Under the pieces are notes generated by a model. It saw nothing but the letters and a program-made list of their open reading frames with translations. It ran no database searches and had not been told where the DNA came from. The position numbers were made by a program, and so were the translations under genes. From Chondrosia reniformis (lineage: Eukaryota; Porifera; Demospongiae; Chondrillida; Chondrillidae): 64,000 nucleotides of DNA. Positions 14,811-33,893 of the stretch are shown here, in pieces; positions within the stretch are counted from its first letter, which is position 1, and each line of letters starts with the position of its first letter. Location: positions 5,705,673 through 5,769,672 of the forward strand of contig OX359197.1 of the NCBI GenBank assembly GCA_947172415.1, read 5' to 3'.

Positions 14811-17800
14811 TTACATGTCATCGTTAACATATTGAGGTGATTGACTTGTTCCTACTTCAGCTTTCAAATTCCTACATTCTTCCAGAGGTACATAAGCTGG
14901 GTTCTGTTGTTCTATAACAGCTTCATCACTGTCAGGAATTCTCTCTCCTTCATCTGATTTTGAAGTCTCAGGTGGACTGGATGGAGCTACGTACGTATAT
15001 ATTATATACAAATTAAAAAAGGCTAAAAGGATAATATATACAGACATTCAAATATAATATAAAAGATAGATATACAGTCCAACCATGTTTCTTTGCACAT
15101 TTTGTCTTTGCAAAGCAAAGGATGATTCCAAGGAGGACGATAGTCACAAATGCAAAAAGGAGAATGCTCTCTATTATTATTATGATGTACAAAGTTGAAA
15201 CAACTTCGTGTTGAGGGTTTCCCAGAAATTCTATATTTCAAAAGAAAAATATTAAAGACAAACTAGGTAGGTTGATTGCTTTTCCAGTACATACATAACA
15301 AAGTGTTCTATAAGACTAGAAGTTATAGTGCTTTCTGACATCATATTACATATACGTATAACAGTACGTCTTGACATCTATATACAATTACTTGGTAAGG
15401 CTGCTTCCAATACATGAATGGTTACTATTTCACTGTCTTCCATCCCTCCGTCATTCAATAAAGCATGACAACTGAAGTTTATTTCCATTACTTTACTGGT
15501 AATATTGACTGCAACTTTTATACTTGATACATGTGGAGTGTATAGCAATTTCCTGTAAGTATCATTAGGAAGTACCTGACCATTCATCCTCCAAAATGGA
15601 TTTCTTTGGTTGAAAATAAAATGTTCTTTGAATTTTGCTTCAATATTATGGTGTCTACATATTAGTGTTACCCAATCTCCGTTACAACTTTCACTTTGAC
15701 CGCAGCTGGTAAACAACTGAGTTGTCTCTGCAAATTGAAAATTCACAAAAGAAACTAGCTGTTAAATTAATTGTAAAGGAATTGAAATCACTGAGACAAT
15801 CATCAATGCATTCAATTCCTTGTACGTATATATAAATTATAATATATGCGGCACTTTACATACTTTTATTATATATATACATACTGTAGCACTAACCTAA
15901 AGTATAGAAGCATTCTCTAACAATCTGACTATCGTGATCAACCCCCCCAAATTCTCCATGACCATATAGGAATACTTCGTACTTGGTTCCTGAACACAGC
16001 TCATTAATGACAGCTTCTGTCTCAGTAGTAATAACTGTCTTACTACACTCTGGTTTAGGAGCTAATGCAGTGAGGTTGTAAGTAAAGGAGAGATCTTCAA
16101 AACATACTTTATTGTGATTCCACTTGAGAGAAATTAATGAACTTCGAAATTGATTATGAGAAGTAGTGAATTCCGGATGGATTGGTCTCACTGCATGTAT
16201 GACATATTTATGTACGTATAATACAGCTCATGCACTTAATAAGTATTATATACATGAATGATGATAGTTGTACATACGTAGTTCCTCTAAAGTATAGATG
16301 TAGCATGCATGCTGAAAACTAGTGTGTCAGATTATTCATGCATATGTCAAACTGATAATAAATGCTGCCAATTGCAAGCTATAGACACAACATTTTACAA
16401 GATTGTTCTGTTGACACAACAGACATGTTATAGTAAAAAAATAAAATTAATTAGCATTCCAAAATTAATAAGTATACGAATACATTCAATTTAAAGTTTA
16501 TATTGTAAAATGTGCTTTTTAGATTGCTGATGAATCTTCACTTCGTATATAAACACATGCAGTACTAATGGTATGTTAACATTTTGATTCCTGAAAAGGT
16601 TTCATGTTTCTTTCTCCCAAGTCATCTAACCTGGTGCTATTGGTCATTCCATCAGACTTCCCTGTGGCTGCCTGTGGAGGTCTAACATTAGCAAGCTGAC
16701 TTTCATTAATCTGTGTGACAGAATGACCATGAACTTCTGTTCCTTGCTGTTGCTGAAGCTTCTTAGGTGATGAAATGAGCTCTGCTTCGGGGGGATGACT
16801 GGAAACAAAGATTTCAGAACTCTGATCATTTATCATTGAGGTGGTTACCTGCTCCTTAAAAGCAGCTTGCATCTCTGTTTCTTTCAAATTTTCTGATACA
16901 CTATTTAATGCAGCCATTAATGTGGAAGTTGATATTAGTTTCTCCGAGGGATCAAGTGTGCCCATTTCTGCAATTGGCTTAATAGGCTTGTCATCAAGGT
17001 TAACATACTTTTCTTTAGCTACTGGCTGTTGTACCGTTTCGATATCTTCAGCTACTGGCTGTTGTACTGTTTTGACAGCTTCAGCTACTGGATGGTGTAC
17101 CGTTTCGACATCTTCAGCTACTGGCTGTTGTACTGTTTTGACAGCTTCAGCTACTGGATGGTGTACCATTTCGACATCTTCAGTTACTGGCTGTTGTACT
17201 GTTTTGACAGCTTCAGCTACTGGATGGTGTACCGTTTTGACATCTTCAGCTACTGGCTGTTGTACTGTTTTGACAGCTTCAGCTACTGGCTGTTGTACCG
17301 TTTCGACATCTTCAGCTACTGGCTGTTGTACTGTTTTGACAGCTTCAGCTACTGGATGGTGTACCATTTCGACATCTTCAGCTACTGGCTGTACTGTTTT
17401 GACAGCTTCAGCTACTGGATGTTGTACCGTTTTGACAGCTTCAGTTACTGGCTGTTGTACTGTTTTGACAGCTTCAGCTACTGGATGTTGTACCGTTTTG
17501 ACATCTTCAGCTACTGGCTGTTGTACCGTTTCGACATCTTCAGCTACTGGCTGTTGTACCGTTTCGACATCTTCAGCTACTGGCTGTTGTACTGTTTTGA
17601 CAGCTTCAGCTACTGGATGGTGTACCATTTCGACATCTTCAGTTACTGGCTGTTGTACCGTTTTGACATCTTCAGCTACTGGATGTTGTACCGTTTTGAC
17701 ATCTTCAGTTACTGGCTGTTGTACCGTTTTGACATCTTCAGCTACTGGATGTTGTACCGTTTTGACATCTTCAGTTACTGGCTGTTGTACTGTTTTGACA

Positions 17801-20800
17801 GCTTCAGCTACTGGATGTTGTACCGTTTTGACATCTTCAGCTACTGGATGTTGTACCGTTTTGACATCTTCAGCTACTGGCTGTTGTACCGTTTCGACAT
17901 CTTCAGCTACTGGCTGTTGTACCGTTTTGACATCTTCAGCTACTGGCTGTTGTACTGTTTTGACATCTTCAGCTTGTGAATGTTGTACCTTTTTGACATC
18001 TTCAGCTACTGGCTGTTGTACTGTTTTGACAGCTTCAGCTACTGGATGGTGTACCATTTCGACATCTTCAGCTACTGGCTGTTGTACTGTTTTGACAGCT
18101 TCAGCTACTGGATGTTGCACCGTTTTGACATCTTCAGCTACTGGCTGTTGTACCGTTTCGACATCTTCAGCTACTGGCTGTTGTACTGTTTTGACAGCTT
18201 CAGCTACTGGATGGTGTACCGTTTTGACATCTTCAGCTACTGGCTGTTGTACCGTTTTGACATCTTCAGCTACTGGCTGTTGTACTGTTTTGACAGCTTC
18301 AGCTACTGGATGGTGTACCATTTCGACATCTTCAGTTACTGGCTGTTGTACCGTTTTGACATCTTCAGCTACTGGATGTTGTACCGTTTTGACATCTTCA
18401 GTTACTGGCTGTTGTACCGTTTTGACATCTTCAGCTACTGGATGTTGTACCGTTTTGACATCTTCAGTTACTGGCTGTTGTACTGTTTTGACATCTTCAG
18501 CTACTGGATGTTGTACCGTTTTGACATCTTCAGCTACTGGATGTTGTACCGTTTTGACATCTTCAGCTACTGGCTGTTGTACCGTTTCGACATCTTCAGC
18601 TACTGGCTGTTGTACTGTTTTGACAACTTCAGCTACTGGCTGTTGTACCGTTTTGACATCTTCAGCTACTGGCTGTTGTACCGTTTTGACATCTTCAGCT
18701 TGTGAATGTTGTACCTTTTTGACATCTTCAGCTACTGGCGGTTGTACTGTTTTGACAGCTTCAGCTACTGGATGGTGTACCATTTCGACATCTTCAGCTA
18801 CTGGCTGTTGTACTGTTTTGACAGCTTCAGCTACTGGATGTTGCACCGTTTTGACATCTTCAGCTACTGGCTGTTGTACCGTTTCGACATCTTCAGCTAC
18901 TGGCTGTTGTACTGTTTTGACAGCTTCAGCTACTGGATGGTGTACCGTTTTGACATCTTCAGCTACTGGCTGTTGTACCGTTTTGACATCTTCAGCTACT
19001 GGCTGTTGTACTGTTTTGACAGCTTCAGCTACTGGATGGTGTACCATTTCGACATCTTCAGCTACTGGCTGTTGTACTGTTTTGACAGCTTCAGCTACTG
19101 GATGGTGTACCGTTTTGACATCTTCAGCTACTGGCTGTTGTACCGTTTCGACATCTTCAGCTACTGGCTGTTGTACCGTTTTGACAGCTTCAGCTACTGA
19201 CTGTTGTACCGTTTTGACAGCTTCAGCTACTGGCTGTTGTACCGTTTTGACAGCTTCAGCTACTGGCTGTTGTACTGTTTTGACATCTTCAGCTACTGGC
19301 TGTTGTACCGTTTTGACATCTTCAGTTACTGGCTGTTGTACCGTTTTGACATCTTCAGCTACTGGATGGTGTACCATTTCGACATCTTCAGTTACTGGCT
19401 GTTGTACTGTTTTGACAGCTTCAGCTACTGGATGGTGTACCGTTTTGACATCTTCAGCTACTGGCTGTTGTACTGTTTTGACAGCTTCAGCTACTGGCTG
19501 TTGTACCGTTTCGACATCTTCAGCTACTGGCTGTTGTACTGTTTTGACAGCTTCAGCTACTGGATGGTGTATCATTTCGACATCTTCAGCTACTGGCTGT
19601 TGTACTGTTTTGACAGCTTCAGCTACTGGATGTTGCACCGTTTTGACATCTTCAGCTACTGGCTGTTGTACCGTTTCGACATCTTCAGCTACTGGCTGTT
19701 GTACTGTTTTGACAGCTTCAGCTACTGGATGGTGTACCGTTTTGACATCTTCAGCTACTGGCTGTTGTACCGTTTTGACATCTTCAGCTACTGGCTGTTG
19801 TACCGTTTTGACATCTTCAGCTACTGGCTGTTGTACCGTTTTGACATCTTCAGTTACTGGCTGTTGTACCGTTTTGACATCTTCAGCTACTGGATGGTGT
19901 ACCGTTTCGACATCTTCAGTTACTGGCTGTTGTACTGTTTTGACAGCTTCAGCTACTGGATGGTGTACCGTTTTGACATCTTCAGCTACTGGCTGTTGTA
20001 CCGTTTTGACATCTTCAGCTACTGGCTGTTGTACTGTTTTGACAGCTTCAGCTACTGGATGGTGTACCATTTCGACATCTTCAGTTACTGGCTGTTGTAC
20101 TGTTTTGACAGCTTCAGCTACTGGATGGTGTACCATTTCGACATCTTCAGTTACTGGCTGTTGTACTGTTTTGACAGCTTCAGCTACTGGATGTTGTACC
20201 GTTTTGACATCTTCAGTTACTGGCTGTTGTACTGTTTTGACATCTTCAGCTACTGGATGGTGTACCGTTTTGACATCTTCAGCTACTGGCTGTTGTACCG
20301 TTTCGACATCTTCAGCTACTGGCTGTTGTACCGTTTTGACAGCTTCAGCTACTGGCTGTTGTACCGTTTTGACAGCTTCAGCTACTGGCTGTTGTACCGT
20401 TTTGACAGCTTCAGCTACTGGCTGTTGTACCGTTTTGACAGCTTCAGCTACTGGCTGTTGTACCGTTTTGACAGCTTCAGCTACTGGCTGTTGTACTGTT
20501 TTGACATCTTCAGCTACTGGCTGTTGTACCGTTTTGACAGCTTCAGCTACTGGATGGTGTACCGTTTCGACATCTTCAGCTTGTGAATGTTGTGGTTTTA
20601 CAACACTTTCTATTTGTACTTCTAAAGGTAAGTCCTTTTCAATATCTGATTTGTTCAGTTTTCTCATCCTTATAAATATATAAGCCAATAACGCTATTAT
20701 AACAGCACCAAAAAGAATAAGAATGACCAACTCTAATATTACTGCAGTAAGAAGCCATTTTGAAAGTAAATTACCTATATTAGAGGAATAAATGAAGAGA

Positions 20801-22294
20801 GTGAATTAATAAGGCTCTACACAACTGAGCTATAGAGCTTACTTTTTGGTTCTCCAATCATTCTACAACAACTATAAGAACATTTATGGGGACACAGTTT
20901 ACCTGAAGAAAGACATAAGTTACTAAATAATAGTATACATGTATGTAGGTGGAAATTTACACCTACCTGATTCTGTTACTTCCATTTCTAAAGTCTCAAT
21001 CAAAATATCAACAGATTGGTTCATGCTTAGACCAGTAATAGTGATTAGGATATCAACAGCAGATGACAATCTCTTCCATAAATAAAATGTTGTATCTGTT
21101 ACATTTATGTACTGATTAAATGTTCCATCAGCATCCCAAAAGCGGATTGTAAGAATAAATTTGAAAGTAGTGTTCTTAAAGCAACTTTCCATAACCTTCC
21201 ATGTCAGGTTACATTGATTTAGCAGTAGATTGCACAGGTTTTCAATGGCCACATGAGCCTTCACTGTGATAACAATAAGTTAAACATAAAAGGACAAGCT
21301 TAAAAATGATAGGTAAGTAAACAATGTATACTAATATTTTGATAGGATTATATTAAAGTCCACCATTATTTCGGAAATAAGACATCACAAGATGTCACTG
21401 GTCCTTCACTCTTCTTTGCAGGGATACCAGAAACTAAATTAACTATCTCTAAAATTGTCCTTTTTTGTCAAAAAATGTATTATCTATGGATGCTTCAATA
21501 ACAAAAAGTCCCAATCTCAATCTAAATACATTACTTACCCAGAGCAATACTAAAATATAATAGGCCAACATAAAACAATAAGTATGATGCTTGACATTTT
21601 AGCAAGTCAGTGTCTGAAAATCTTCACGCCAGACATCAGGAAAAAGAGAAGTTGTGGGATCATATTCAAGGCAAAACAAACCAACTATGATGATTTGACA
21701 AAGTATGGAGATGCACAATTGATAAAGGGGAGAATATTGGTGAATATCACCAAGTTTCTGTATATAGCATAGAAAAGATCTATTTACCTATTGAGATTAA
21801 TTACCCAATGTTAGCAATTCCATTCCAACTAGTAATAAAATCTCTCACCTTGTGGATCAATAATAATTTCAGCACTGATTTCGGTTTTATCGCGGAAAAG
21901 CAAAACACACGAGTAGTTAACTGCCATAGTAACGGGTGTTCTTAAAACAGTGGCCGTGTCATTTTCACTGAAAGCCTCTTCCTGTACACCATTACCATCA
22001 GCAACAAATGTAACTCCATTTCTCCTCCATTCAATAGAAGTGTGATGCACTTCCGGATCAAGCTTTGGGTGAACACACGTCAGTTCGTACGTTTCTCCAA
22101 GGCAATATGGCAAAGAAGGGCCAGTTAGAGTAACAGCCGATTTACCTAAAGAAAACAATACCAATAAATCCATAGATGCCGGGTTATAACTCCCTCCCTA
22201 TGGCAATCAATGATCGTCATGAACCACATACAAAGTAGCTACTTAACTTACCATATTGGAATAAAGTTAAAGTTGCCATCAAAAGCAGGAGCAT
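14811..22294 (-). CDS. Ig/FN3 transmembrane receptor, short-tail form
   Basis: Seven exons on the minus strand: 22294-22252 (signal peptide MLLLLMATLTLFQY), 22145-21849 (Ig), 21263-20967 (FN3-like), 16190-15897 (FN3), 15727-15392 (Ig), 15230-15084 (TM) and 14986-14811 (tail). They total 1590 nt, giving 529 residues. Every intron is phase 1, typical of shuffled ectodomain exons. The first Ig has the C-W-C core (ELTC, IEWRRNG, VNYSC). The second FN3 shows GTKYEVFLYGHG. The TM segment reads YIIIIIESILLFAFVTIVLL. The tail has NPAYVPL and QYVNDD, possible phosphotyrosine docking motifs. Joining exon 3 to the FN3 exon at 16190 skips the giant exon of the other form; this splice is inferred from phase. 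Function is probably cell-surface recognition or signalling. Confidence 0.65.
16191..16575 (-). other. Non-coding gap between repeat-tail exon and second FN3 exon
   Basis: 385 bp with no signal-peptide exon or promoter that I can see for a separate downstream gene. This is the reason for proposing that the FN3-Ig-TM exons are alternative 3' exons of the upstream receptor. Confidence 0.4.
16576..22294 (-). CDS. Ig/FN3 transmembrane receptor, giant repeat-tail form
   Basis: Exons 22294-22252 (signal), 22145-21849 (Ig), 21263-20967 (FN3-like) and 20774-16576. They total 4836 nt, giving 1611 residues, all phase-1 introns. The last exon starts with a membrane span (WLLTAVILELVILILFGAVI to YIFIRMRK). 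A cytoplasmic tail follows of about 108 tandem 11-residue units of the type VKTVQQPVAED. The end is unique: KYVNLDD, a QQQQ run and a stop at 16576. The true exon begins at the acceptor before 20774, not at the TTG at 20730. Ectodomain exons are shared with the short form, so these are probably alternative terminal exons of one gene. The tail looks disordered, and its partner is unknown. Confidence 0.75.
17020..20590 (-). repeat. 33-bp coding minisatellite, about 108 units (11-residue repeat)
   Basis: Near-perfect head-to-tail 33-bp units encode VKTVQQPVAED with limited variation: K/E at position 2, T/M at 3, QQ/HH/QH at 5-6, A/T at 8, D/A at 10. All units stay in frame; one near 17384 is 3 bp short, losing a single Q. 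Units QHSQAED recur at 17970 and 18696, exactly 726 bp (22 units) apart, showing a higher-order repeat. Because 33 is a multiple of 3 and no unit carries a stop, long open frames also appear on the plus strand; these are artefacts. Confidence 0.95.
21264..21848 (-). other. Receptor intron containing duplicated block X
   Basis: Intron between the first Ig exon and the FN3-like exon. About 21403-21800 is nearly identical to 23515-23900, with only a handful of differences. A 62-codon plus-strand ORF (21584-21772) recurs in the second copy but has no recognisable domain and is not supported as a gene. Confidence 0.6.
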
Positions 22295-23512
22295 ATTTGT
22301 AAAATATCTGTTACGTGTGTCATAAAGTTAAATACAAGTCTCCTAGTACCAGGGAATCTCTTCGAAGCTGTTGAAAATGGGTCTCTTACTAGGTACAGCC
22401 AAAGATAAACGAACAACAACAAGTTCCGTTGAATGGGTAACTCTTACGCGAAATATTCCATTACCGTATATGGGAAATTGAATGCGTGTGTCAAAAGAAT
22501 GTAAACACTGTGGTTAAAGGAAAAAAAATAAAGCTTAGGTGTACGGGACTTGTTTTGCAATCTTTTACTGCTCAATTTCTGATATACCGTACTTCATCAC
22601 TCAACTATTTTCTTTTATCATTCTGTTTACTGTTTAATGCATGAATCACTGAAACAAACACCGGGGATTGCTCAGGCTCACCCCACAATACCTTGCATTC
22701 TCTAGTAATAATAGTCTTTTGAGCACAGTGTGATCAGACAGCTTCACCCTAGGGGCCTTCTTCAGCAACTGACTGGTATATTTAGCTGGTCATTCCAGTC
22801 ACTCATTCTCTTTCATAAGTTATATAATAATAGTACTAAGAATTTGCATAATTCCAACCAATCAATGTCTTTTAAAGTTAAACTTTATTAAAGGCAGCAA
22901 TATCTACAGACTGGACAAGGTCTTCAAAAGCTGTTATTGATTCTTCCAAAAAGTCCGTACCAATCTGTAAAAAGAAAAGCATATACGTATATAACAAAAA
23001 AACATAAATTGTGGTTTAGGGAACTATATATATAAAAATCACTTTATCATCTTCAACAACGCAACTGATTTGCAGCTTCTTGATGCCATAAGCAAGAGGA
23101 ACCAGCTTAGCTAAGGAAATAGACATGATAGAAGGGTGATGAAACCCAAGTGGAGAAGTAAATTAAATGGCTACTCACATGCCCCCCACAAGAGCCCATC
23201 AGCTTCAATGCTTCGTACCATCTTCTCAACCTCTGCCATATCTGCATAAATGTTTTAGGTTAGAATAATAATATCTGCATAAATGTTTTAGGTTAGAATA
23301 TCACATGCACCTATGGAACTATTGCCCAACACTTACACCTATGAAACTATTGCCCAACACTTACCTGTTTCATCATCCCATGGTTTCACGTCTAGAATAA
23401 TGTTTGACTTTGCAATCAATGCTGGTTCTAAAAATGACAGATTTGTTGTCTCAAATGTCACAGAAATAGTAACCAGGTTGCTTAGTTAAGTTCCAGTCAC
23501 TTGCCTCCCTCA
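21403..23512. repeat. Tandem segmental duplication, left copy (blocks X and Y)
   Basis: Block X (about 21403-21800) plus block Y (about 21800-23455: first Ig exon, signal exon, intergenic DNA and the last four eEF1B exons) is followed by a second X (about 23515-23930). A second Y starts near 30385, after inserted retrotransposons. The order X-Y-X'-Y' indicates tandem duplication by unequal exchange. The left Y ends at about 23455 inside the eEF1B gene, which truncates that copy. Confidence 0.85.
22878..23427 (-). pseudogene. Truncated eEF1B beta copy (last four exons only)
   Basis: Minus-strand exons 23427-23365, 23241-23179, 23110-23043 and 22964-22878 match the last four exons of the complete gene at 32344-33893. 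They keep identical lengths (63, 63, 68, 87 nt) and splice sites. They encode the [37 protein letters not shown] and FNKV-stop part of the guanine-exchange domain. Exons 1-4 are absent: homology stops near 23455. One replacement is visible (EDLVQ against EDHVQ in the complete gene). The frame is open, but without a start or N-terminus it is best called a duplicated gene fragment. Confidence 0.85.
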
Positions 23513-24115
23513 CTCTTCTTTGCAGGGATACCAGAAACTAAATGAACTATCTCTAAAATTGTCCTTTTTTGTCAAAAAATGTATTATCTATGGATGCTTC
23601 AATAACAAAAAGTCCCGATCTCAATCTAAATACATTACTTACCCAGAGCAATACTAAAATATCATAGGCCAACATAAAACAATAAGTATGATGCTTGACA
23701 TTTTAGCAAGTCAGTGTCTGAAAATCTTCACGCCAGACATCAGGAAAAAGAGAAGTTGTGGGAACATATTCAAGGCAAAACAAACCAACTATGATGATTT
23801 GACAAAGTATGGAGATGCACAATTGATAAAGGGGAGAATATTGGTGAATATCACTGTTTCTGTATATAGCATAGAAAAGATCTATTTACCCATTGTACCT
23901 ATCTTAATCCCAATTTTACATGTATGTCTCCCTCCACTAAATTACAATATCTTTTAAGCTCAGACAATACAAAAGTCATTAACTTTTTTTATAGAATGTA
24001 TAATCTCAGACAATCCCTTTTATCTCCATCATAATTTATTGTAAACACCCTCACCAATCTTTTTTGTGACTAATAAGCCAAACCTGGCTGGTCAGCTTGT
24101 ATACTGATAGTCACT

Positions 24116-24117
<2 letters not shown>
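23428..24117. other. Duplication junction and block X' without genes
   Basis: From about 23455 homology to the eEF1B gene stops. From about 23515 to 23930 the sequence is the second copy of block X. The rest, up to the AAT microsatellite, shows nothing I can identify. Confidence 0.6.
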
Positions 24118-24185
<68 letters not shown>

Positions 24186-24186
24186 G
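24118..24186 (+). repeat. (AAT)n microsatellite at 5' end of retrotransposon 1
   Basis: About 23 perfect AAT units directly abut the first bases of the retrotransposon (AAGATGGCGGC). The same arrangement, inverted, marks the 5' end of the second element. Confidence 0.9.
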
Positions 24187-27159
24187 ATGGCGGCTTGCGA
24201 TTGACAGCTGCTTGTGTCTCACAGATTGTAACCGATAGCCGTGATGCCAGAACCTTGTTGTCCTTGTATGAGTAAAGGACGCTGCGTTCGTTGTTCATGT
24301 GTCAAAGCGGGACGTCGTTGTGTTGACTGTCGGCCTTCACGGTCCCTTCCAGCCAGGTGTGAAAACCAAGTTCCATCTCACAATAACGACGCTTGTTCAG
24401 CCGCTTCAGAGTCACAGAACGCAGGTGATACCCCACATCAGGATGAGTTTCCAGATAGTTGGAGCGAGTACTTCGCAAATGGTCAGCCTAGAGTTAACAT
24501 TTTGAGAAGAATCCCGAAAGCGTCTCGCGATTTGTGTGCGAGGAAATTAGCGACTATCATCGAGGTCTTGGTGGCAAATAAGTCTGTTACATCTTGGAGA
24601 CGCTTGATGGATTTCCCAAGGAAGTGTCTTAGAGTCCCCAGGAGAGGTAGTCGACGTAGGGATCTATCTAAATTGCTCAATAAGCAAATTATTGATGAAG
24701 AAGATGAGCCAGCACCACCTGTAGGGTTTGCCAGGAATAGAAAAGGTTCCTCTGATTTGCAATTAGTTGCTAGACGTGTTTCCAGGAAACTGGAGGAAGG
24801 TAACATCAAAGGTGCTGTGAGGTTAGCTACATCAGAGGATATCATAGCTGAAGAAAATGACTCCACCATTTCTGCTTTGCAATCAAAGCACCCATCCCCT
24901 CACCCTGAATCATCACCCATCCCAGCTCCTGACAAAAGTCATCTTAATAACGCCATAATAGTGAGTACACTAGATCTCATTAAGGCAATTAAAACATTTC
25001 CTAGGGGCTCTGCTGGAGGTCCTGATGGACTACGACCCCAGCATCTCCTTGATCTGACGGGATTTAGTGCTGGTGAAGGCGGTGCTCTTCTTATTCAGGC
25101 CTTGACAAACTTTACCAACCAGGTTCTAGCAAATGAAACCCCTGAAACTGTTCGCCCATTCTTTTTCGGAGCATCTATTACTGCTCTCACTAAGAAGGAT
25201 GGTGGAATTCGTCCTATTGCTGTAGGTTGTACGCTACGTCGCCTAGTTGCCAAACTGGCATGTAGGAGCATTCAAGATCGTATGATTGCCTACCTTTCTC
25301 CAGCCCAACTTGGTTTTGGAGTACCTCATGGAGCCGAAGCTGCAATACACGCAACAAGGTTATACCTGAGTCAGCTACCACCTAGTCACATTCTTATGAA
25401 GCTTGATTTTGCCAATGCTTTTAATTCCATCAGACGTGACAAAATGCTTGTCTCTGTCAAAGAGATAGCTCCTGAAATTTTTCCCTTTGTTTTTTCATCT
25501 TATTCCAGTACTTCCTATCTCCAATTTGGAAACACCACCATCTTGTCAGCTGAGGGCATTCAGCAAGGTGATCCCTTGGGTCCTTTGCTTTTCTGTCTCA
25601 CCATCCACTCCCTTGTCAGTGAGCTGAAGTCAGAACTGAAGTTTTTCTATCTTGATGATGGTACCATTGCTGGCACGGAATCAGACATCTTGGATGACCT
25701 CAAATCCATTGAAAGAAATGGCAGAGATCTAGGGCTACACCTCAATCATAGTAAGACAGAACTGATTGGTAGTACAGACTGCAGCTGTGGAGAACAAATC
25801 TTCTCCTATGCCCCTGACATCCGTAGAGTTGACCCTTGCAATGCAGAGCTTTTAGGTTCCCCCATTGGTGACATATCACATACAGATAATGCCATCCTTG
25901 ATAAGGTAAATAAGTTAAAAATCCTTAGTGACAGATTACCACACCTGTCAAAGCAAGATGCTCTCTTTTTGATTCGTTGTGCATTAGCTATTCCTAAAAC
26001 TTTGTACCTCCTCCGCACTGCACCATGCTTTCACTCGCCCCTCCTTGAGGTGTTTGACCAGGAGCTTCGTTCCTTACTGAACTTGACCCTTAACATCCCC
26101 TTTGAGGACCACCATACTTGGTTGCAGGCAACTCTCCCTGTTGGCTGTGGTGGCCTTGGTGTTAGAAGGAGTGTTCAGCTGGCACCTTCTGCCTTTTTGG
26201 CCTCTGCTGCTGCCTCCTCACCACTGATCCAACAACTTCTACCAGGTAGGCTCACTGGTGTATCTTATGTCCCTAAAGAGGATGCTCTTAATCTTTGGCT
26301 TCAATCAGTGGATTGCCCTCCTCCATCTTCACCAAGGGACAGGAAACAACAGGCCTGGGATGAACCCCAGTATAAAGCCACTTATCACACCTTAATTAAA
26401 AGTGCTGGAAATAGCGTCCTGGCGGCGAATGTGAAAGAATCTGGTGCATGGATCAATGCCCTGCCCATCTCCGATGTTGGGTTACGTATGAATGATGATG
26501 AGGTACAACTTGCAACAGCCCTTCGTCTTGGTGCTCCAATTTGCCATCCATACAAGTGTCATCTTTGCGGGCATGATGTTGACCAATACGCTACTCATGG
26601 CTTATCTTGCTATCGTAACACTGGACGGCACTTCAGACATGCTGCTATCAATAACATCATCCATCGATCCCTTGCAACAGCTAATATTCCATCTCGGCTG
26701 GAACCATCAGGTCTCTTTAGGTCAGATGGGAAACGACCTGATGGTGTAACCATCACTCCCTGGACAAGAGGTCGCATCCTTATATGGGATGCTACATGCA
26801 TTGACACATTTGCTCCATCCTATGTGGAAGAAGCAACCAGAGAGGCTGGTTCAGTGGCTGCTATAGCCGAAAGCAGGAAAAAGAAAAAGTATGAAGAGCT
26901 TTCAACCATTCATGAATTCACCCCAGTGGCAATCGAGACTACTGGCGTGATGGGACCAGAAACCATGGAGTTTATTCGTAATCTGACAACCAGAATTAGA
27001 TCCATCACAGGGGAGGACATGGCACACTGCCATCTCATCCAGCAGCTGGCAGTTGCCACTCAGAAGGGGAACGCGATGTCCATCATGTCAACAATGAACT
27101 AAACAAATTTATATTATTATTATTATTTATCCATTATCCATTGTAAATTTAAATTTTAT

Positions 27160-27160
<1 letters not shown>
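24187..27160 (+). mobile_element. Non-LTR retrotransposon 1, full length, RT plus restriction-like endonuclease type
   Basis: One long ORF lies between AAT/TTA microsatellites. There are no LTRs and no apurinic-type endonuclease domain upstream of the RT. The C-terminal CCHC finger followed by KRPDG...WDATCIDT is the arrangement of elements with a restriction-enzyme-like endonuclease, as in the R2/R4 (Dong) group. Dong-type elements are known to insert in TAA repeats, which fits the flanking AAT here. The clade placement is an inference. The element sits inside the X'-Y' junction of the duplication. Confidence 0.85.
24241..27102 (+). CDS. Reverse transcriptase / restriction-like endonuclease polyprotein, intact
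   Basis: An open frame of 953 residues; a likely true start is the ATG at 24244. The N-terminus has a dense cysteine cluster (CCPCMSKGRCVRCSCVKAG, then CVDC). RT motifs appear in order: GGPDGLRPQ near residue 259, RPIAVGCTLRR near 323, KLDFANAFNSIRRD near 386, QQGDPLGPLLF near 441 and the catalytic FYLDDG near 469. A Cx2Cx9Hx3C finger begins near 773. KRPDG near 831 and WDATC near 850 fit a PD-(D/E)XK nuclease. It would copy element RNA at a nicked genomic site (target-primed reverse transcription). The frame has no stops or shifts, so the copy may be recent and possibly active. Confidence 0.88.
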   Translation: MMPEPCCPCMSKGRCVRCSCVKAGRRCVDCRPSRSLPARCENQVPSHNNDACSAASESQNAGDTPHQDEFPDSWSEYFANGQPRVNILRRIPKASRDLCARKLATIIEVLVANKSVTSWRRLMDFPRKCLRVPRRGSRRRDLSKLLNKQIIDEEDEPAPPVGFARNRKGSSDLQLVARRVSRKLEEGNIKGAVRLATSEDIIAEENDSTISALQSKHPSPHPESSPIPAPDKSHLNNAIIVSTLDLIKAIKTFPRGSAGGPDGLRPQHLLDLTGFSAGEGGALLIQALTNFTNQVLANETPETVRPFFFGASITALTKKDGGIRPIAVGCTLRRLVAKLACRSIQDRMIAYLSPAQLGFGVPHGAEAAIHATRLYLSQLPPSHILMKLDFANAFNSIRRDKMLVSVKEIAPEIFPFVFSSYSSTSYLQFGNTTILSAEGIQQGDPLGPLLFCLTIHSLVSELKSELKFFYLDDGTIAGTESDILDDLKSIERNGRDLGLHLNHSKTELIGSTDCSCGEQIFSYAPDIRRVDPCNAELLGSPIGDISHTDNAILDKVNKLKILSDRLPHLSKQDALFLIRCALAIPKTLYLLRTAPCFHSPLLEVFDQELRSLLNLTLNIPFEDHHTWLQATLPVGCGGLGVRRSVQLAPSAFLASAAASSPLIQQLLPGRLTGVSYVPKEDALNLWLQSVDCPPPSSPRDRKQQAWDEPQYKATYHTLIKSAGNSVLAANVKESGAWINALPISDVGLRMNDDEVQLATALRLGAPICHPYKCHLCGHDVDQYATHGLSCYRNTGRHFRHAAINNIIHRSLATANIPSRLEPSGLFRSDGKRPDGVTITPWTRGRILIWDATCIDTFAPSYVEEATREAGSVAAIAESRKKKKYEELSTIHEFTPVAIETTGVMGPETMEFIRNLTTRIRSITGEDMAHCHLIQQLAVATQKGNAMSIMSTMN

Positions 27161-27193
<33 letters not shown>

Positions 27194-27225
27194 TAATAAA
27201 AAAAAAATAATAATAATAATAACAG
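27160..27225. repeat. AAT microsatellite between the two retrotransposon 3' ends
   Basis: AATAATAAT with A-rich interruptions separates the 3' end of element 1 (plus) from the 3' end of element 2 (minus). Both elements therefore end in AAT-type sequence. Confidence 0.8.
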
Positions 27226-30200
27226 CAACTCATGGTCAAAAAAAACAGTCATCACTATGTGGCCTTGCGGATGGGGTAAGGGAGCCCTGGACTGAAATTG
27301 CATTTCCTGTCTGGATGGCAACATAGATTCTTTGGATGAGAAACTCATAGGCTCTTTGATCCCATGTAGCGTCCTTCAATCTGTGGCCAAGGTTCCTAAG
27401 GAAAAACCGGGCTTGGGGGCCAAAAGACCCATAAGTTTCAACAGCGATGGGGGCAAATATATAGGGTGAGCCTAGATCAGCATATTTCTTCTTCTTCAAG
27501 GTTTCTGCATGGGCTGCTGCAGCACCGGCTTCTGTGGCCGATCTCTGTAAGTTGGAAGCGCAGAGGGTGTCAGTACAGGTTGCATCCCATACAAGGAATT
27601 TTCCTTGTGACCAGGGGGTCATGGTCATCCCATCTGGACGTTTTCCGTCAGATCTGTGTAAACACAAAGGCTCCAGTCTAGATGGGATTTTAGAGGCGGA
27701 CAAGGATTGATGGATAATGTCATTGATGGCATTGTGTCGAGGTATTCTACCTTGGCTATGTCTGCAGCTCAGACCATGTGTGGCTAGGTGGTCAACATCC
27801 ATGCCACAGAGGGTACACTTGTGGTGTAGACAAAGGGGGTGCCTAGCCTTAGGCCTATGGCAATGCGAAGGGTATCATCGGACATGCGAAGCCCAAGAGA
27901 GGAGACAGGTAGGGCATTAAGCCATGCACCTAATTCCTTAGTTTGAGCGGCCATGAGACGTGCCCTAGCTTGAGGGTCTACACAGTTGGTGAATAAAGAG
28001 TCCCATCTTGATTGGACTCTCGGTTTGTCCCATGCCTTCTGTAGATGGGAGGTTGGAGATTCAGGCTGGAGTGAATCCGATGGCAGGCACTCCCTCCAGG
28101 AGCGCAATGCAAGATCCTGTTCTATGTAAGTGGTTTTCTGAAGATGTGGGGGAAGAGGTTGCTCTATGAGTGAGGAGGCTCCAACAGCAGAGGCTAAAAA
28201 AGCAGACGGCGCAAGATGGGCAGCACTCCTCAGTCCAAGACCACCTGAACCCACAGGAAGAGTAGCTTGCGTCCAGGCAGGGTCATCAATGTGGAAATGG
28301 ATGTTGGTGATTTGAGAGACAATGGACATTAGGAGCTGGTCGAAGGGGAGCAGTGTGGGTGATAAGAATGCTGGAGAGGTACGTAGAATATGTAGCAGTT
28401 TAGGAATAGCAAAGGAGTGCCGGAGTAAGGTGATGGCATCATGTGAGTGTAGGTAACAAATGCGCTCACCTATTAATTTCAGCTGGTTTGTTTTGGCCTC
28501 TAGGGTTTCATTGATTGAGGCAATGTCACCCAGAGAGGAGCCCAGAAGAGTGGCATCATTAGCATTGACAAAATGTAGACCAGGGAATGAGGACAGAAGT
28601 ACTTCAACCGATGACTGGTCATGGCTGATAAGTTTGGACTTTTCAACATTGAGATGTAAGCCAAGCTCCTTACCCTTCTCCTCAATTGATTTGAGGTCAT
28701 CGAAGATGTCATCAAGGTTACCGCCAATTGTACCATCATCTAGGTAGAAAACGTTGAATTCAGCCTTTAGATTAGAAATTAGCTTGTGGATTGTGAGACA
28801 AAAAAGCAAGGGGCCAATAGGGTCTCCCTGCTGGACTCCCTCTGAAGAATTCACATCCACGTCATCCCATAACAAGATAGATGGTGAAGAATAAGCTGAA
28901 TGGACATAGGGTAGGAGTTCAGGGATGAAATCTCTTACAGCTGTAAGCATTTTGTCCCGCCGGATACTGTTGAAGGCGTTTCTGAAGTCCACTTTCAGGA
29001 GGGCCTGATGTGATGATAGTTGTTCAGACAAATTCTTGTTGCATGAACAGTAGCTTCTACTCCTCTGGGGATCCCAAAGCCTAGCTGATGTAGTGCTAAC
29101 AAATGTGGGATTGTCTTCAATGCGTGGAGGCTAGCACACTTTGAAGCAAGCCTTCTGAGAGTGCATCCTACAGCAATTGGGCGGACACCTCCGCCCTTCT
29201 TCCTGAGGGCAATGAGGTTGGCTCCAAAGAAGTATGGTCGTATGGCAGCTGGAGTTCTGCCTTCTAAGATCAATGTAGCTAAACCCACCAGAGCTCCCCG
29301 CAATAACTGACCTCCTTCCCCTGCAGACTGACTGGAGAGATCCTTCAGATGTTGAGGGAGAAGACCATCAAATCCTCCGCCTGAGGAGTTAGGAAAGGAA
29401 ACAATTGCTTTCATTATTGTCTCTATATCTAGAGGGAAAGGCAGGGGGTTAATAGAGTCGTGATGTACGAAGTGGGAGTCCGGGTTGGGAGAGGGGTGCT
29501 TGAGCCTCAAGGCATTGAGGGTGGCCTCCGAGTGATCAGCCAGGGTGTCTTTGCTGCATGCTAGTCTCACTGCCCCTTTAAAATTGCCTTCCTCCAATTT
29601 GCTATAAACTCTACCTGAAAGCCACTTGATGAAACTATTGGGTTTAGCTGTCGCCCGTCTAACCTTGTCGTGTTGCCTAGACATCTCTACTGAGGAGCAA
29701 TCCTCAGAGATTTGTTCATTGACTAGGGTGGTTAGGTTCCAGCGTTTACCTCCTCTGCGAGGCACCCGAAAGTACTTTTTTGGAAATTGGAGAAGGTGCA
29801 CCCAGGAAGGGATATCATTATGAAGGATAACTTGGTCGATTGCGGAGGCCAATTTCATTGCAGCAAGCGCTCTAGAACTGCGGGGTATTCTTTTCAGAGT
29901 TCTGCAAGGCTGAATCAAGATGCGCTTTAATTGAAGAATGTCGTCGTCGTGAGCATCAATAGACCTGGTCTAAGAGGGGGGAACCGGGTCCCCCGGGCTT
30001 GCACTGTGGGCTGAGTGAGTGCTGCAATGGTTTGGATCAGAGGCGCGCACGATCGGTGAAGCGGGAAGGTGCGTGGTAGGGGGAGGTGCACTAATGTTGC
30101 TAAAATTGACGCATCTGGCAGGAATCGTCGAAGACGGTCGACAATCAACACATCTTCTACCATTCTTTACGCATTGACATCGGATACAGCGACCGTTGGG

Positions 30201-30226
30201 CAACATCGCGGCGGGAATCTTGACGC
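27226..30226 (-). mobile_element. Non-LTR retrotransposon 2, tail to tail with element 1, decayed
   Basis: Same domain order as element 1 but on the minus strand and clearly divergent in protein sequence, so a different subfamily. Its 5' end (AAATGGCGTCAAG on the minus strand) directly abuts an AAT microsatellite at 30227 onward, mirroring element 1. The coding region is broken by frameshifts. Confidence 0.85.
27236..30206 (-). pseudogene. Frameshifted reverse transcriptase/endonuclease gene of element 2
   Basis: The protein is spread over several minus-strand frames. 30206-29970 holds the N-terminal cysteine cluster (RCIRCQCVKNGRRC, CVDC). 29918-28995 holds the region up to the palm (GGFDGLLPQHL, RPIAVGCTLRRL). 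29031-27784 holds LKVDFRNAFNSIRRD, QQGDPIGPLLF and catalytic FYLDDG. 27802-27236 holds the C-terminal THGLSC finger end, KRPDG and WDATCTDT. The overlaps at about 28995-29031 and 27784-27802 locate small indels, and a stop separates the cysteine cluster from the rest. At least three breaks make it inactive. Catalytic residues are still visible. Confidence 0.88.
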
Positions 30227-30269
30227 CATTTATTATTATTATTATTATTATTTATTATACGTTTCTCCA

Positions 30270-30304
<35 letters not shown>

Positions 30305-30325
30305 GTAATAATAATAATAATAATA
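30227..30325. repeat. AAT/TTA microsatellite at 5' end of retrotransposon 2
   Basis: A TTA run followed by an AAT run with few interruptions. It marks the original microsatellite target and is followed within 70 bp by the start of duplicated block Y'. Confidence 0.85.
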
Positions 30326-30442
30326 TAGCAGCTGTATATATGTATGGCTACATGAGACTACTTCTACAATCACTAGGTCATTGAATCAATTACCCAATGT
30401 TAGCAATTCCATTCCAACTAGCCTAGTAATAAAATCTCTCAC

Positions 30443-30888
30443 CTTGTGGATCAATAATAATTTCAGCACTGCTTTCGGTAGAATTGCGGAAAAGCACAAC
30501 ACACGAGTAGTTAACTGCCATAGTAACGGATGTTCTTAAAACAGTGGCCGTGTCATTTTCACTGAAAGCCTCTTCCTGTACATCATTACCATCAGCAACA
30601 AATGCAGCTCCATTTCTCCTCCATTCAATAGAAGTGTGATGCACTTCCGGATCAAGCTTTGGATGAATACACGTCAGTTCGTACGTTTCTCCAAGGCAAT
30701 ATGGCAAAGAAGGGCCAGTTAGAGTAACAGCCGGTTTACCTAAAGAAAACAATACCAATAAATCCATAGATGCCGGGTTATAACTCCCTCCCTATGGCAA
30801 TCAATGATCGTCATGAACCACATACAAAGTAGCTACTTAACTTACCATATTGGAATAAAGTTAAAGTTGCCATCAAAAGCAGGAGCAT
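30443..30888 (-). CDS. Second copy of receptor signal-peptide and Ig exons
   Basis: Minus-strand exons 30888-30846 (signal peptide, identical to the first copy) and 30739-30443 (Ig domain, 297 nt, same splice phases) duplicate 22294-21849. The frame is open and splice sites are intact. The Ig domain differs from the first copy at ten residues: S/P, V/I, V/A, T/A, G/D, P/S, L/V, D/N, K/S and I/S, with a new N-S-T glycosylation sequon. No FN3, TM or tail exon follows before the retrotransposons. It is either a truncated duplicate or an alternative first-exon pair that could splice onto 21263 or 22145, both phase-compatible. Confidence 0.7.
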
Positions 30889-31015: not shown

Positions 31016-31888
31016 AGTTGTTGTTCGTTTATCTATGGTACAGCATAGCACGGATGCCGCTTCCTGTTTTGTTTCGATATAAATGAATATCATTATAAAA
31101 TATGAATATCATTATAATATATGAAGTTTTCCAAGTGGAATTCAAGAAGCTTCCAAAGTATCCACCATCTAATTTGCTCAATATCTTCCTAAAGGTAATA
31201 TAAGCCATATTGAAATTTGGTTTTAGCATTATTCATCGCTAACCATTACAATGGTGTTTACATAGTAAACGAAGTTAATGAATAAACGGAGTAGTACGTC
31301 TAGGATGATTTCGTAATCGCGTAGTGTAAATTAATACATGTATATTATTGGTCATATTATGTTGTCAAGATGATTAAAGGACCAATGAGGAACGAAAGGA
31401 TCGTAATAGTAATTGGCTAAAGTGTTGCTAAGGCGATATAACCCGACCTACCTTTACGAGGCGAAAGAGGTGAAAGCGTGTCTCCTGAAATTCCCCACCC
31501 AATAGCTATATATTGATTTATAGCTCCCTCCCTTGATAGCTACAGTTTTCAATGTAGCAATCTCAGATATGTCGCCCTCAACCATCTGCCTTAGGCATCA
31601 AGATGAAGGAAGCTGCGCCCCTCCCAAAGCCGGTTCGGGGGTGTGGCAGAATTTCACCTAGCCGGACCGCCAAAGCCTAATGGCATCTTGATGCCTAAGG
31701 CAGATGGTTGAGGGCGACATATCTGAGATTGCTACATTGAAATCGAGGTTGGCGGCAGAAACCAGGACAAACGACGCTCTGCTCTTGTTAGCGCAAGTGC
31801 CATTCATTAAACGATATTCATATTTTATAATGATATTCATTTATATCGAAACAAAACAGGAAAGGGCATCCGTGCTGTACATTGTAAG
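31016..31888. mobile_element. Foldback/MITE-like insertion with long inverted termini and nested hairpin
   Basis: Present only in the right duplication copy. The left copy has CAAGTTCCGTTGAATGGG uninterrupted at 22430-22447. Ends near 31040-31110 and 31790-31878 are inverted repeats (CCTGTTTTGTTTCGATAT... ATTATAAAATATGAATATC). Inside is a second perfect palindrome with 59-nt arms, 31547-31605 and 31684-31742, around a 78-nt G+C-rich loop. No ORF encodes a transposase, so it would be non-autonomous. Confidence 0.75.
31547..31742. repeat. Perfect 59-nt inverted repeat with 78-nt loop
   Basis: The arm starting TTTCAATGTAGCAATCTCAG at 31547 is exactly complementary to the arm ending at 31742. 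The perfect match suggests recent origin or selection for the hairpin. Confidence 0.85.
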
Positions 31889-32343
31889 ACCCTGTTGAAT
31901 GGGTAACTCTTACGCGAAATATTCCATTACCGTATATGGGAAATTGAATGCGTGTGTCAAAAGAATGTAAACACTGTGGTTAAAGGAAAAAAAATAAAGC
32001 TTAGGTGTACGGGACTTGTTTTGCAATCTTTTACTGCTCAATTTCTGATATACCGTACTTCATCACTCAACTATTTTCTTTTATCATTCTGTTTACTGTT
32101 TAATGCATGAATCACTGAAACAAACACCGGGGATTGCTCAGGCTCACCCCACAATACCTTGCATTCTCTAGTAATAATAGTCTTTTGAGCGCAGTGTGAT
32201 CAGACAGCTTCACCCTAGGGGCCTTCTTCAGCAACTGACTGGTATATTTAGCTGGTCATTCCAGTCACTCATTCTCTTTCATAAGTTATATAATAATAGT
32301 ACTAAGAATTTGCATAATTCCAACCAATCAATGTCTTTTAAAG

Positions 32344-33893
32344 TTAAACTTTATTAAAGGCAGCAATATCTACAGACTGGACATGGTCTTCAAAAGCTGT
32401 TATTGATTCTTCCAAAAAGTCTGTACCAATCTGTAAAAAGAAAAGCATATACGTATATAACAAACAAACATAAATTGTGGTTTAGGGAACTAATTCAGCT
32501 GTATATAAAAATTACTTTATCATCTTCAACAACACAGCTGATTTGCAGCTTCTTAATGCCATAAGCAAGAGGAACCAGCTTGGCTAAGGAAATAGACATG
32601 ATAGAAGGGTGATGAAACCCAAGTGGAGAATTAAATTAAATGGCTACTCACATGCCCCCCACAAGAGCCCATCAGCTTCAATGCTTCGTACCATCTTCTC
32701 AACCTCTGCCATATCTGCATAAATGTTTTAGGTTAGAATAATAATATCTGCATAAATGTTTAGGTTTAGAATATATGGTACTTTAAGAACAACAAAAATC
32801 AGGTACATTATAGGGTGTTTCAAAATCACTTGAATTTCACATGCACCTATGCAACTATTGCCCAACACTTACACCTATGCAACTATTGCCCAACACTTAC
32901 ACCTATGAAACTATTGCCCAACACTTACACCTATGCAACTATTGCCCAACACTTACACCTATGCAACTATTGCTCAACACTTACACCTATGAAACTATTG
33001 CCCAACACTTACACCTATGAAACTATTGCCCAACACTTACACCTATGAAACTATTGCCCAACACTTACACCTATGAAACTATTGCCCAACACTTACCTGT
33101 TTCATCATCCCATGGTTTCACGTCTAGAATAATGTTTGACTTTGCAATCAATGCTGGTTCTAAAAACGACAGATTTGTTGTCTCATTTATGATACAATGG
33201 CAGGTTACTTTACTGATATATTTTTTCATTTCATTTTCATTTAATCATTTCATTTCATTTATCAAATGCATTTTAACTCACTCTTTGCCTTCTTGGCAGC
33301 ATATGCTTCTAGCCGCTCCTGCTTCAACCTTTCAGCTTCAGCTGATTCCTAAAATATGTTGGAACACTCAGGTAAAGTAAACCGGATGACAAAATTAAAA
33401 GTACACCAAAATCTAACTCACTTCTTCATCTTCACTTCCAAAGAGATCAAAATTATCATCATCCTCGTCATCGTCGTCATCTTTGGATGAAGCTGTCCCC
33501 TGTGGTCCATACTCTTCAAGTGCTTTCGCAACACCAGGCCAACTGCACATACAAGACACACTTGCGTTAACATTAGTCAGTTCCGTTGAAACAACGTTAT
33601 ACACCAGTCTCACCAGGGCCACTCGCTTTTCTGATACGACGCTATTTGGTTGTACCACCTCAACACATGGACGAATTTACCATCTGGACTTCCAGATAAA
33701 GCATTGAACACGACCACGTCGCCTTGCGAGGGAGTCCATCTGCACGGCGAATCAATTAACACTTCCCTTCTTACGACTGAAACTTTAAATGTCTCATTAG
33801 CAAGCACACGTACCCGTCGATGTAGCTCTTGTTCGCCAGGAAGTTGTGAAGCGCTTCCAATCCAGCCGGAGACTTCAAGTTTCCAAAGCCCAT
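32344..33893 (-). CDS. EEF1B2: Elongation factor 1-beta (eEF1B beta), complete
   Basis: Eight minus-strand exons: 33893-33814, 33739-33614, 33542-33422, 33348-33282, 33159-33097, 32714-32652, 32583-32516 and 32430-32344. They total 675 nt, giving 224 residues, the usual family length (about 225). It is the guanine-nucleotide exchange subunit that recharges eEF1A with GTP. The N-terminus [15 protein letters not shown] is family-typical. The acidic [20 protein letters not shown] block, the [20 protein letters not shown] linker and the C-terminal exchange domain ([36 protein letters not shown] at the end) follow. An AATAAA overlaps the last codons (F-N-K), a possible very proximal polyA signal. 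The exon 2/3 junction (WP-C-WPG) is the least certain splice. Confidence 0.93.
32840..33096. repeat. 28-bp minisatellite in eEF1B intron, nine units
   Basis: Direct repeats of ACTTACACCTATG(C/A)AACT plus ATTGCCCAAC run without spacers up to the splice donor of exon 33159-33097. On the coding strand each unit carries GTAAGTG, a copy of the donor motif. The truncated paralogue has only two units at 23310-23364. This is not a CRISPR array, because there are no spacers. Confidence 0.9.

What the first reader, a model, noticed from the sequence alone, without database searches (positions are those of the whole stretch)
21849..30739. Duplicated Ig exons differ almost only by amino-acid changes
Seen: the two 297-nt Ig exons (21849-22145 and 30443-30739) differ at 13 bases. 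I count 12 as non-synonymous (10 residues changed) and 1 as synonymous. About 290 bp of adjacent non-coding DNA, including the signal exon, differ at a single base, and the next ~400 bp are similarly conserved. A coding exon changing over ten times faster than its own introns is the reverse of neutral decay. It fits strong diversifying selection, or conversion from a divergent allele. Changes cluster in RDKTEIS/RNSTESS, which creates an N-glycosylation sequon, as in a ligand-contact loop.
Basis: seen in the sequence. Interest (0 to 1): 0.92.

Follow-up and report, generated by a model that had tools for sequence, protein, structure and literature searches.

The report
Duplicated V-like Ig receptor module, sponge
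Two copies of the start of a sponge cell-surface receptor gene differ mostly by amino-acid changes; they are outlying members of a very large family of immunoglobulin-type receptor genes whose variable segments appear shuffled between genes, a candidate for how sponges tell self from non-self.

Summary
The counts are right; the contrast drawn from them is one-sided. The two 297-nt exons differ at 13 bases (12 amino-acid-changing, 1 silent; 10 residues), and the signal-exon side is nearly identical (2 of 733 bp). But the intron on the other side (8/400) and eEF1B sequence in the same duplication (17/573) diverged too. Against those, the exon is not clearly faster (p=0.08, 0.33), and 12:1 is not significant for this pair alone (p=0.10-0.22).

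The genome is the sponge Chondrosia reniformis. A tandem duplication of about 2.1 kb copied the upstream region, signal exon and Ig exon of a membrane-receptor gene. The exon encodes a V-like Ig domain of a large family: 122 Ig1 matches, 101 within C1:7.70-9.45 Mb; members read in detail run Ig-FN3-Ig(-FN3)-TM-NPxY tail. Family dN/dS is about 1, the C'-E and F-G loops vary most, and loop segments have conflicting histories (r 0.26 against 0.69 simulated without recombination), as gene conversion would leave them. Four of ten changed residues fall on sites inferred positive in the family (p=0.02). The pair is N-rich but third of 34. The family is the real finding: a candidate sponge recognition-receptor complex; function is inferred.

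The parts
22252..22294 (-). signal-peptide exon, copy 1 (MLLLLMATLTLFQYG)
   Evidence: donor GTAAGT, phase 1
21849..22145 (-). Ig1 exon, copy 1 (V-like Ig domain, 98 whole codons, phase 1-1)
   Evidence: fold
20967..21263 (-). FN3-like exon (D2); one match in the genome, itself
   Evidence: in-frame splice; FN3-like by eye only (W-x-CF pattern of the family's FN3 exons), no Pfam hit
16576..20774 (-). transmembrane exon plus long cytoplasmic tail, about 106 copies of an 11-residue repeat, stop at 16576
   Evidence: 1611-aa open reading frame when spliced
15897..16190 (-). FN3 exon of family type, in frame with the Ig1 exon
   Evidence: (weak fn3, E=0.075); exon end read by eye
15392..15727 (-). 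Ig2 exon of family type
   Evidence: 89 matches in the genome, itself included; boundaries read by eye
14814..15237 (-). second TM exon and short tail with NPAYVPLE and SPQYVND
   Evidence: NPAY motif seen also in a C1 and a C10 member; this tail was not among the matches
30846..30888 (-). signal-peptide exon, copy 2 (same sequence as copy 1)
30443..30739 (-). Ig1 exon, copy 2
21394..21793 (.). intron block X downstream of Ig1 exon copy 1; 8/400 different from its duplicate
23496..23895 (.). block X', the duplicate of X that belonged to copy 2
22881..23453 (-). 5'-truncated eEF1B fragment carried along with copy 1
32347..33598 (-). eEF1B exons beside copy 2 (3' exons inside the duplication, further 5' exons outside it)
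   Evidence: upstream exons identified by eye and by blastn to the C7 eEF1B locus
24232..29969 (.). two facing reverse-transcriptase elements between X' and copy 2 (ORF 24232-27102 +; ORFs 27236-29969 -)
   Evidence: RVT_1 1.6e-20 for the + ORF; the - ORFs by eye and by the inverted match
31020..31893 (.). 874-bp insertion in copy 2, absent from copy 1

Best explanation
SHOWN: a tandem duplication of about 2.1 kb copied the 3' half of eEF1B together with the upstream region, signal exon, Ig1 exon and part of the next intron of a receptor gene. Copy 1 kept the rest of the gene (FN3-like, transmembrane, 106-repeat tail); copy 2 is an orphan 5' module behind inserted RT elements, with intact splice sites and reading frame. 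The Ig1 exon belongs to a large V-like Ig receptor family concentrated on C1. SHOWN BY STATISTICS: family Ig1 domains change at dN/dS near 1, vary most in the C'-E and F-G loops, and their segments have conflicting histories. INFERRED: the window pair is one recent case of this process, substitutions tolerated or favoured at contact positions plus short conversion tracts. A later conversion homogenised the signal-exon side, which makes the exon look exceptionally fast. INFERRED: the proteins are surface recognition receptors signalling through tyrosine tails; copy 2 may still serve as an alternative 5' module, since splicing it to the Ig1 or FN3-like exon keeps the frame.
Against: No donor tract for the divergent loop in this assembly. 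The quiet tract could instead be conserved regulatory DNA. In 27 of 31 other pairs the exon is less diverged than its upstream flank, many of these flanks being hardly alignable, so the window pair is not typical in that respect. Recombination can create false positive sites, and a second subfamily of 12 gave only one such site. No expression, allele or protein data were available.
Confidence: 0.68

Rival explanations
1. One reading: strong diversifying selection on these two exons drove point substitutions at ligand contacts, over ten times the neutral rate.
For: 12:1 replacement to silent changes; 4 of 10 changes at sites positive in the family; 5 changes in 14 bp of the F-G loop.
Against: N:S p=0.10-0.22; not faster than eEF1B sequence in the same duplication (p=0.33). 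Two of the other 33 pairs are more N-rich.
Confidence: 0.3
2. Conversion of the exon, or just the loop, in one copy from a divergent allele or paralog; the flanks show the true young age of the duplication.
For: Clustered changes including a whole codon (AAA/TCT); family-wide segment exchange; loops have raised silent as well as replacement divergence (pS 0.100 vs 0.051 in framework).
Against: No donor in the assembly within 3 mismatches; divergence in X and eEF1B needs a second explanation.
Confidence: 0.35
3. Neutral decay: copy 2 lost its downstream exons, is dead, and the exon drifts at the 2-4% seen elsewhere in the duplication; the quiet tract was recently homogenised.
For: No FN3 or TM exon of its own was seen beside copy 2; exon rate not distinguishable from the eEF1B rate and 12:1 compatible with chance.
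Against: At sites the C7 paralog can polarise, 4 changes fall in copy 1 and 6 in copy 2, 3 of those 6 in the uncertain loop, so copy 2 is not alone in changing; changes avoid conserved positions (p=0.013); frame and splice sites intact.
Confidence: 0.22
4. Assembly artefact: two haplotypes placed in tandem.
For: Curators removed four haplotypic duplications from this assembly (PMC12181767, passages).
Against: Copies have different flanks: truncated vs longer eEF1B, RT elements, an 874-bp insertion; reported QV 69.8. A database protein identical to copy 2 is listed on a contig of 8,107,507 bases, where C9 has 7,702,672, so possibly from another assembly.
Confidence: 0.03

Closest known systems
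Hydractinia Alr1/Alr2 and the allorecognition complex (ARC)
   Different: Here Ig-FN3-Ig(-FN3) ectodomains, over 100 Ig1 exons, tail with an NPxY-like motif; no polymorphism or genetics known. Homology to Alr was not tested.
RAGE V domain, VHH and TCR V-alpha domains (fold only)
   Different: 10-19% identity in the rows listed; shared fold shows no function.
Sponge aggregation factor genes (neighbours in the window)
   Same: Calx-beta domains and a C-terminal domain family, 29 of 35 matches on C9.
   Different: The receptor gene is not one of them; calling the neighbour an aggregation factor rests on recall.
Sponge SRCR proteins combined with Ig and FN3 domains
   Same: Expanded sponge surface proteins with Ig and FN3 domains (PMC4772301 passages).
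   Different: No SRCR domain was seen in the members read here; the paper's passages do not describe this family.
Geodia cydonium Ig-domain receptor tyrosine kinase and adhesion molecule (kinase recalled; adhesion molecule in a review passage)
   Same: Sponge membrane proteins with Ig-like domains.
   Different: No kinase exon seen in the members read; large tandem family instead of single genes.

Membership tests
Immunoglobulin superfamily, V-like domain | B- and F-strand cysteines and C-strand tryptophan | tested here: met
   C23, W39, C79 invariant in 52 aligned members
Immunoglobulin superfamily, V-like domain | Ig fold | tested here: met
Family of the C1 cluster receptors | Ig1 exon homologous to the C1 exons | tested here: met
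   best C1 match E=2.5e-12, 47% identity
Family of the C1 cluster receptors | Ig1-FN3-Ig2-TM-NPxY tail in one gene | tested here: inconclusive
   all parts lie in order on the minus strand 22.3-14.8 kb, but another TM and repeat tail lie between; no transcript data
Hydractinia Alr family | Linked cluster of Ig-superfamily membrane protein genes | tested here: met
   101 Ig1 exons in C1:7.70-9.45 Mb; the window gene itself is outside the cluster
Hydractinia Alr family | Sequence homology to Alr1/Alr2 | not tested
   no Alr sequence was compared
Hydractinia Alr family | Polymorphism that controls fusion and rejection | not testable with these tools
   no alleles or crosses held
Gene with alternative or mutually exclusive Ig exons (Dscam-like use) | Symmetric exon phase that allows either copy | tested here: met
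   both Ig1 exons are phase 1-1; joined frames open
Gene with alternative or mutually exclusive Ig exons (Dscam-like use) | Transcripts using each copy | not testable with these tools
   an RNA run is listed in PMC12181767 but not held

The most novel reading that the evidence does not exclude
The C1 cluster is a sponge recognition complex: over a hundred V-like Ig receptors whose C'-E and F-G loops are recombined between genes in the germ line like exchangeable cassettes. The window's receptor, lying among aggregation-factor-like genes on C9, is an outlying member with duplicated, diverging 5' modules that can be spliced alternatively; it may read aggregation factors or kin.
Probability: 0.27. 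Interest if true: 0.92.

Novelty: new variant of a known kind. Interest (0 to 1): 0.62.

Why it matters
Sponges reject grafts with fine specificity, which implies an underlying polymorphic genetic system (PMC5450542 passages); that no sponge receptor locus has been established is my recall. A clustered, hypervariable family of V-like Ig receptors with tyrosine-bearing tails in a sponge gives a concrete locus to test, and would place large diversified Ig receptor clusters in one of the earliest animal branches. The duplicated exon pair in the window is a small, clean example of how such genes diversify.

Tried and rejected
Pfam on the window exon alone finds nothing; the domain is recognised through relatives and fold. 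No conversion donor for either loop was found. I first took both eEF1B pieces for relics; one search showed the copy-2 side continues into further eEF1B exons, so only copy 1 is truncated and the eEF1B baseline is partly constrained. The flank comparison for the window pair is not valid (its simple alignment runs into the 874-bp insertion and the RT elements); searches are used instead. One search compared 32 of the 34 pairs; two were left out. The eight co-duplicated pairs were chosen by me for well-aligned flanks. Of 85 distinct pieces, 81 entered the alignment, 49 the site analysis of group A, 12 that of group C (one positive site). The site analysis is my own grid method with fixed kappa 2 and an approximate tree; recombination weakens it. 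The first control of the segment test counted gaps as differences, which inflates the control; one search repeats it without gaps, with a simulation and a PHI-type permutation, and the result holds. Loop boundaries were set by me after seeing the family alignment. Head-to-head Ig1 exons were not followed up. PMC5450542 reports no significant enrichment of aggregation-factor genes in the Amphimedon graft response (passage), which speaks against tying the novel reading to aggregation factors. Literature: the listings showed no title or abstract start on this family; passages were read in PMC12181767, PMC11999971, PMC5450542, PMC8129030, PMC11067881, PMC4772301 and PMC12723187; none in whole. Grice 2017 and Huene 2022 are not held, so absence from print is not shown.
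Full report
ORGANISM. The window is C9:5705673-5769672 of a 117,379,552-base genome in 15 contigs. This fits Chondrosia reniformis odChoReni1.1: 117.37 Mb, 14 chromosomes plus mitochondrion, longest scaffold 10.41 Mb (search listing; passages); C1 here is 10,409,357 bases.

OBSERVATION. The two exons are real: minus strand, same splice sites, 13 differences, 10 residues changed and one silent codon. The 733 bp on the signal-exon side that can be compared differ at 2 bases. These diverged by 2.0% (8/400) and 3.0% (17/573). Heterogeneity is significant without the exon (p=0.002). The exon exceeds all other sequence together (4.4% vs 28/1759, p=0.005), but not the eEF1B part (p=0.33), and the downstream intron only marginally (p=0.077). 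One silent change or fewer of 13 is expected by chance in 10-14% of neutral draws (22% counted by codon). The statistically most unusual feature beside the exon is the quiet tract: two long difference-free gaps, p=0.001 (all).

ANATOMY. In minus-strand order: eEF1B with upstream exons; copy 2 (signal exon 30888-30846, Ig1 30739-30443); two facing RT elements; intron block X'; truncated eEF1B; copy 1 (22294-22252, 22145-21849); FN3-like exon 21263-20967; TM and 106-repeat tail to the stop at 16576; then FN3 16190-15897, Ig2 15727-15392, TM and a short tail with NPAYVPLE (some boundaries by eye). Spliced, copy 1 gives an uninterrupted 1611-aa protein. Joining copy 2 to copy 1 Ig1 (1710 aa) or directly to the FN3-like exon (1611 aa) also stays open, and Ig1 joins the FN3 at 16190 in frame. 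No transcript data were available, so which joins occur is unknown.

FAMILY. A protein search of the own genome with the Ig1 exon gave 150 matches at E<=1, 150 of 157 candidates being scored. Of these, 122 are at E<=1e-3; 106 are on C1, 101 within 7.70-9.45 Mb, the outermost at 7,707,052 and 9,440,228. None of the 122 coincides with one of the 88 other Ig2 matches. Ig2 of the window gave 89 matches at E<=1e-3; a C10 member's tail gave 63 at E<=0.01, the window tail not among them. Of the 122 Ig1 exons, 56 have an Ig2 match within 4 kb downstream on the same strand, 52 a tail match within 7 kb (random strands: mean 36.8, maximum 47 in 500 trials), 27 both; so fewer than half show each further part at these thresholds. 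Members read in detail: Ig1-FN3-Ig2 (L007) continuing into TM and a tail with NPAYIPIE (L090); and on C10 Ig1-FN3-Ig2-FN3-TM and a tail with NPAYVPIE (L017, L091). Counts are lower bounds by the tool's own statement.

SELECTION AND EXCHANGE. Changed residues sit at more variable family columns (mean entropy 2.18 vs 1.64, p=0.013, 81 sequences); this also fits constraint on the rest. In 34 non-overlapping closest pairs, replacement and silent changes total 510 and 178. The pN/pS ratio is 0.97 in the two loops, 0.82 in the B-C segment and 0.85 in framework, and loops have twice the silent divergence of the framework (0.100 vs 0.051), which points to exchange with divergent copies. The window pair has the third highest replacement share of 34. 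Eight co-duplicated pairs give omega 1.12 (kappa 1) or 1.27 (kappa 2); without the window pair 1.05 or 1.19. In 27 of 31 other pairs the exon is less diverged than its upstream flank, many flanks being hardly alignable. A grid analysis of 49 paralogs finds 14 sites with posterior >=0.9 for excess replacement and 20 for deficit; average replacement rate 1.01 against silent 1.27. Twelve of the 14 align to the window; four (44, 45, 70, 86) are changed between the window copies (p=0.019 over 98 positions; 0.022 over 94 testable). A second subfamily of 12 gave one such site.

SEGMENT EXCHANGE TEST. In the 49 paralogs, distances in the three variable segments correlate at mean r=0.32 against 0.755 for random thirds of the same columns. 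Without gap effects: r=0.37 against 0.62 (gap-free columns, 0 of 200 shuffles as low) and 0.26 against 0.67 (columns at least 90% filled, 0 of 200). Simulation on the inferred tree without recombination gives 0.69, sd 0.05, minimum 0.55 in 100 runs. A PHI-type test on 160 informative sites gives 3 of 2000 permutations as low. One shared history does not produce this; segment exchange between paralogs can.

POLARITY. Against the C7 paralog (70.5% identity), 4 changes are assigned to copy 1 and 6 to copy 2, 3 of the 6 in the loop, with 3 undecided; loop positions are unreliable. The C7 paralog has RNSS where copy 2 has RNST and copy 1 RDKT, so a new sequon in copy 2 is not indicated. Neither loop has another source in the genome within 3 mismatches over 22 bases.

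OTHER DATA. Among 5.8 billion proteins the exon alone found one relative at E<=1 (4 candidates): P0001, identical to copy 2, listed on a contig of 8,107,507 bases and standing for three sequences at 90%. The family profile found 11 at E<=0.01 (336 candidates), three of them identical to C1 members here (P0002, P0008, P0010); the others may be alleles or loci I did not fetch.

VERDICT. The pair is a real, modest case of paralog divergence, overstated by its yardstick. The wider family, a large clustered and mosaic V-like receptor family in a sponge, is the result worth following. Its role in self or microbe recognition is inference.

Noticed in passing
16576-20774: Cytoplasmic tail of about 106 near-identical 11-residue units (VAEDVKTVQQP type); the opposite strand is open too (1285-codon frame).
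   Followed up: partly
35314-58765: Plus-strand region: Calx-beta hits in all four pieces tested between 45.2 and 54.4 kb, then a domain (57611-58297) with 35 matches in the genome, 29 on C9, and 42 in public proteins, one of them named (Geodia barretti); aggregation-factor-like by recall.
   Followed up: partly
G000:C1:8832581-9437352: Ten head-to-head pairs of Ig1 exons 1.03-1.13 kb apart, nine of them between 9.30 and 9.44 Mb, suggesting repeated divergent gene pairs with a shared promoter region.
   Followed up: partly
31020-31893: 874-bp insertion in copy 2 with an internal inverted repeat seen by eye (about 31535-31745), like a hairpin transposon.
   Followed up: no
24232-29969: Two related RT elements face each other; the + strand one has a 956-codon open frame with RVT_1.
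   Followed up: no
L010:2305-2682: A canonical I-set Ig exon (E 2e-19) lies beside a C1 cluster member, so other Ig gene types are mixed into the cluster.
   Followed up: no
4354-7320: Filamin repeats on the plus strand, part of a larger open region of about 3-12.6 kb.
   Followed up: no
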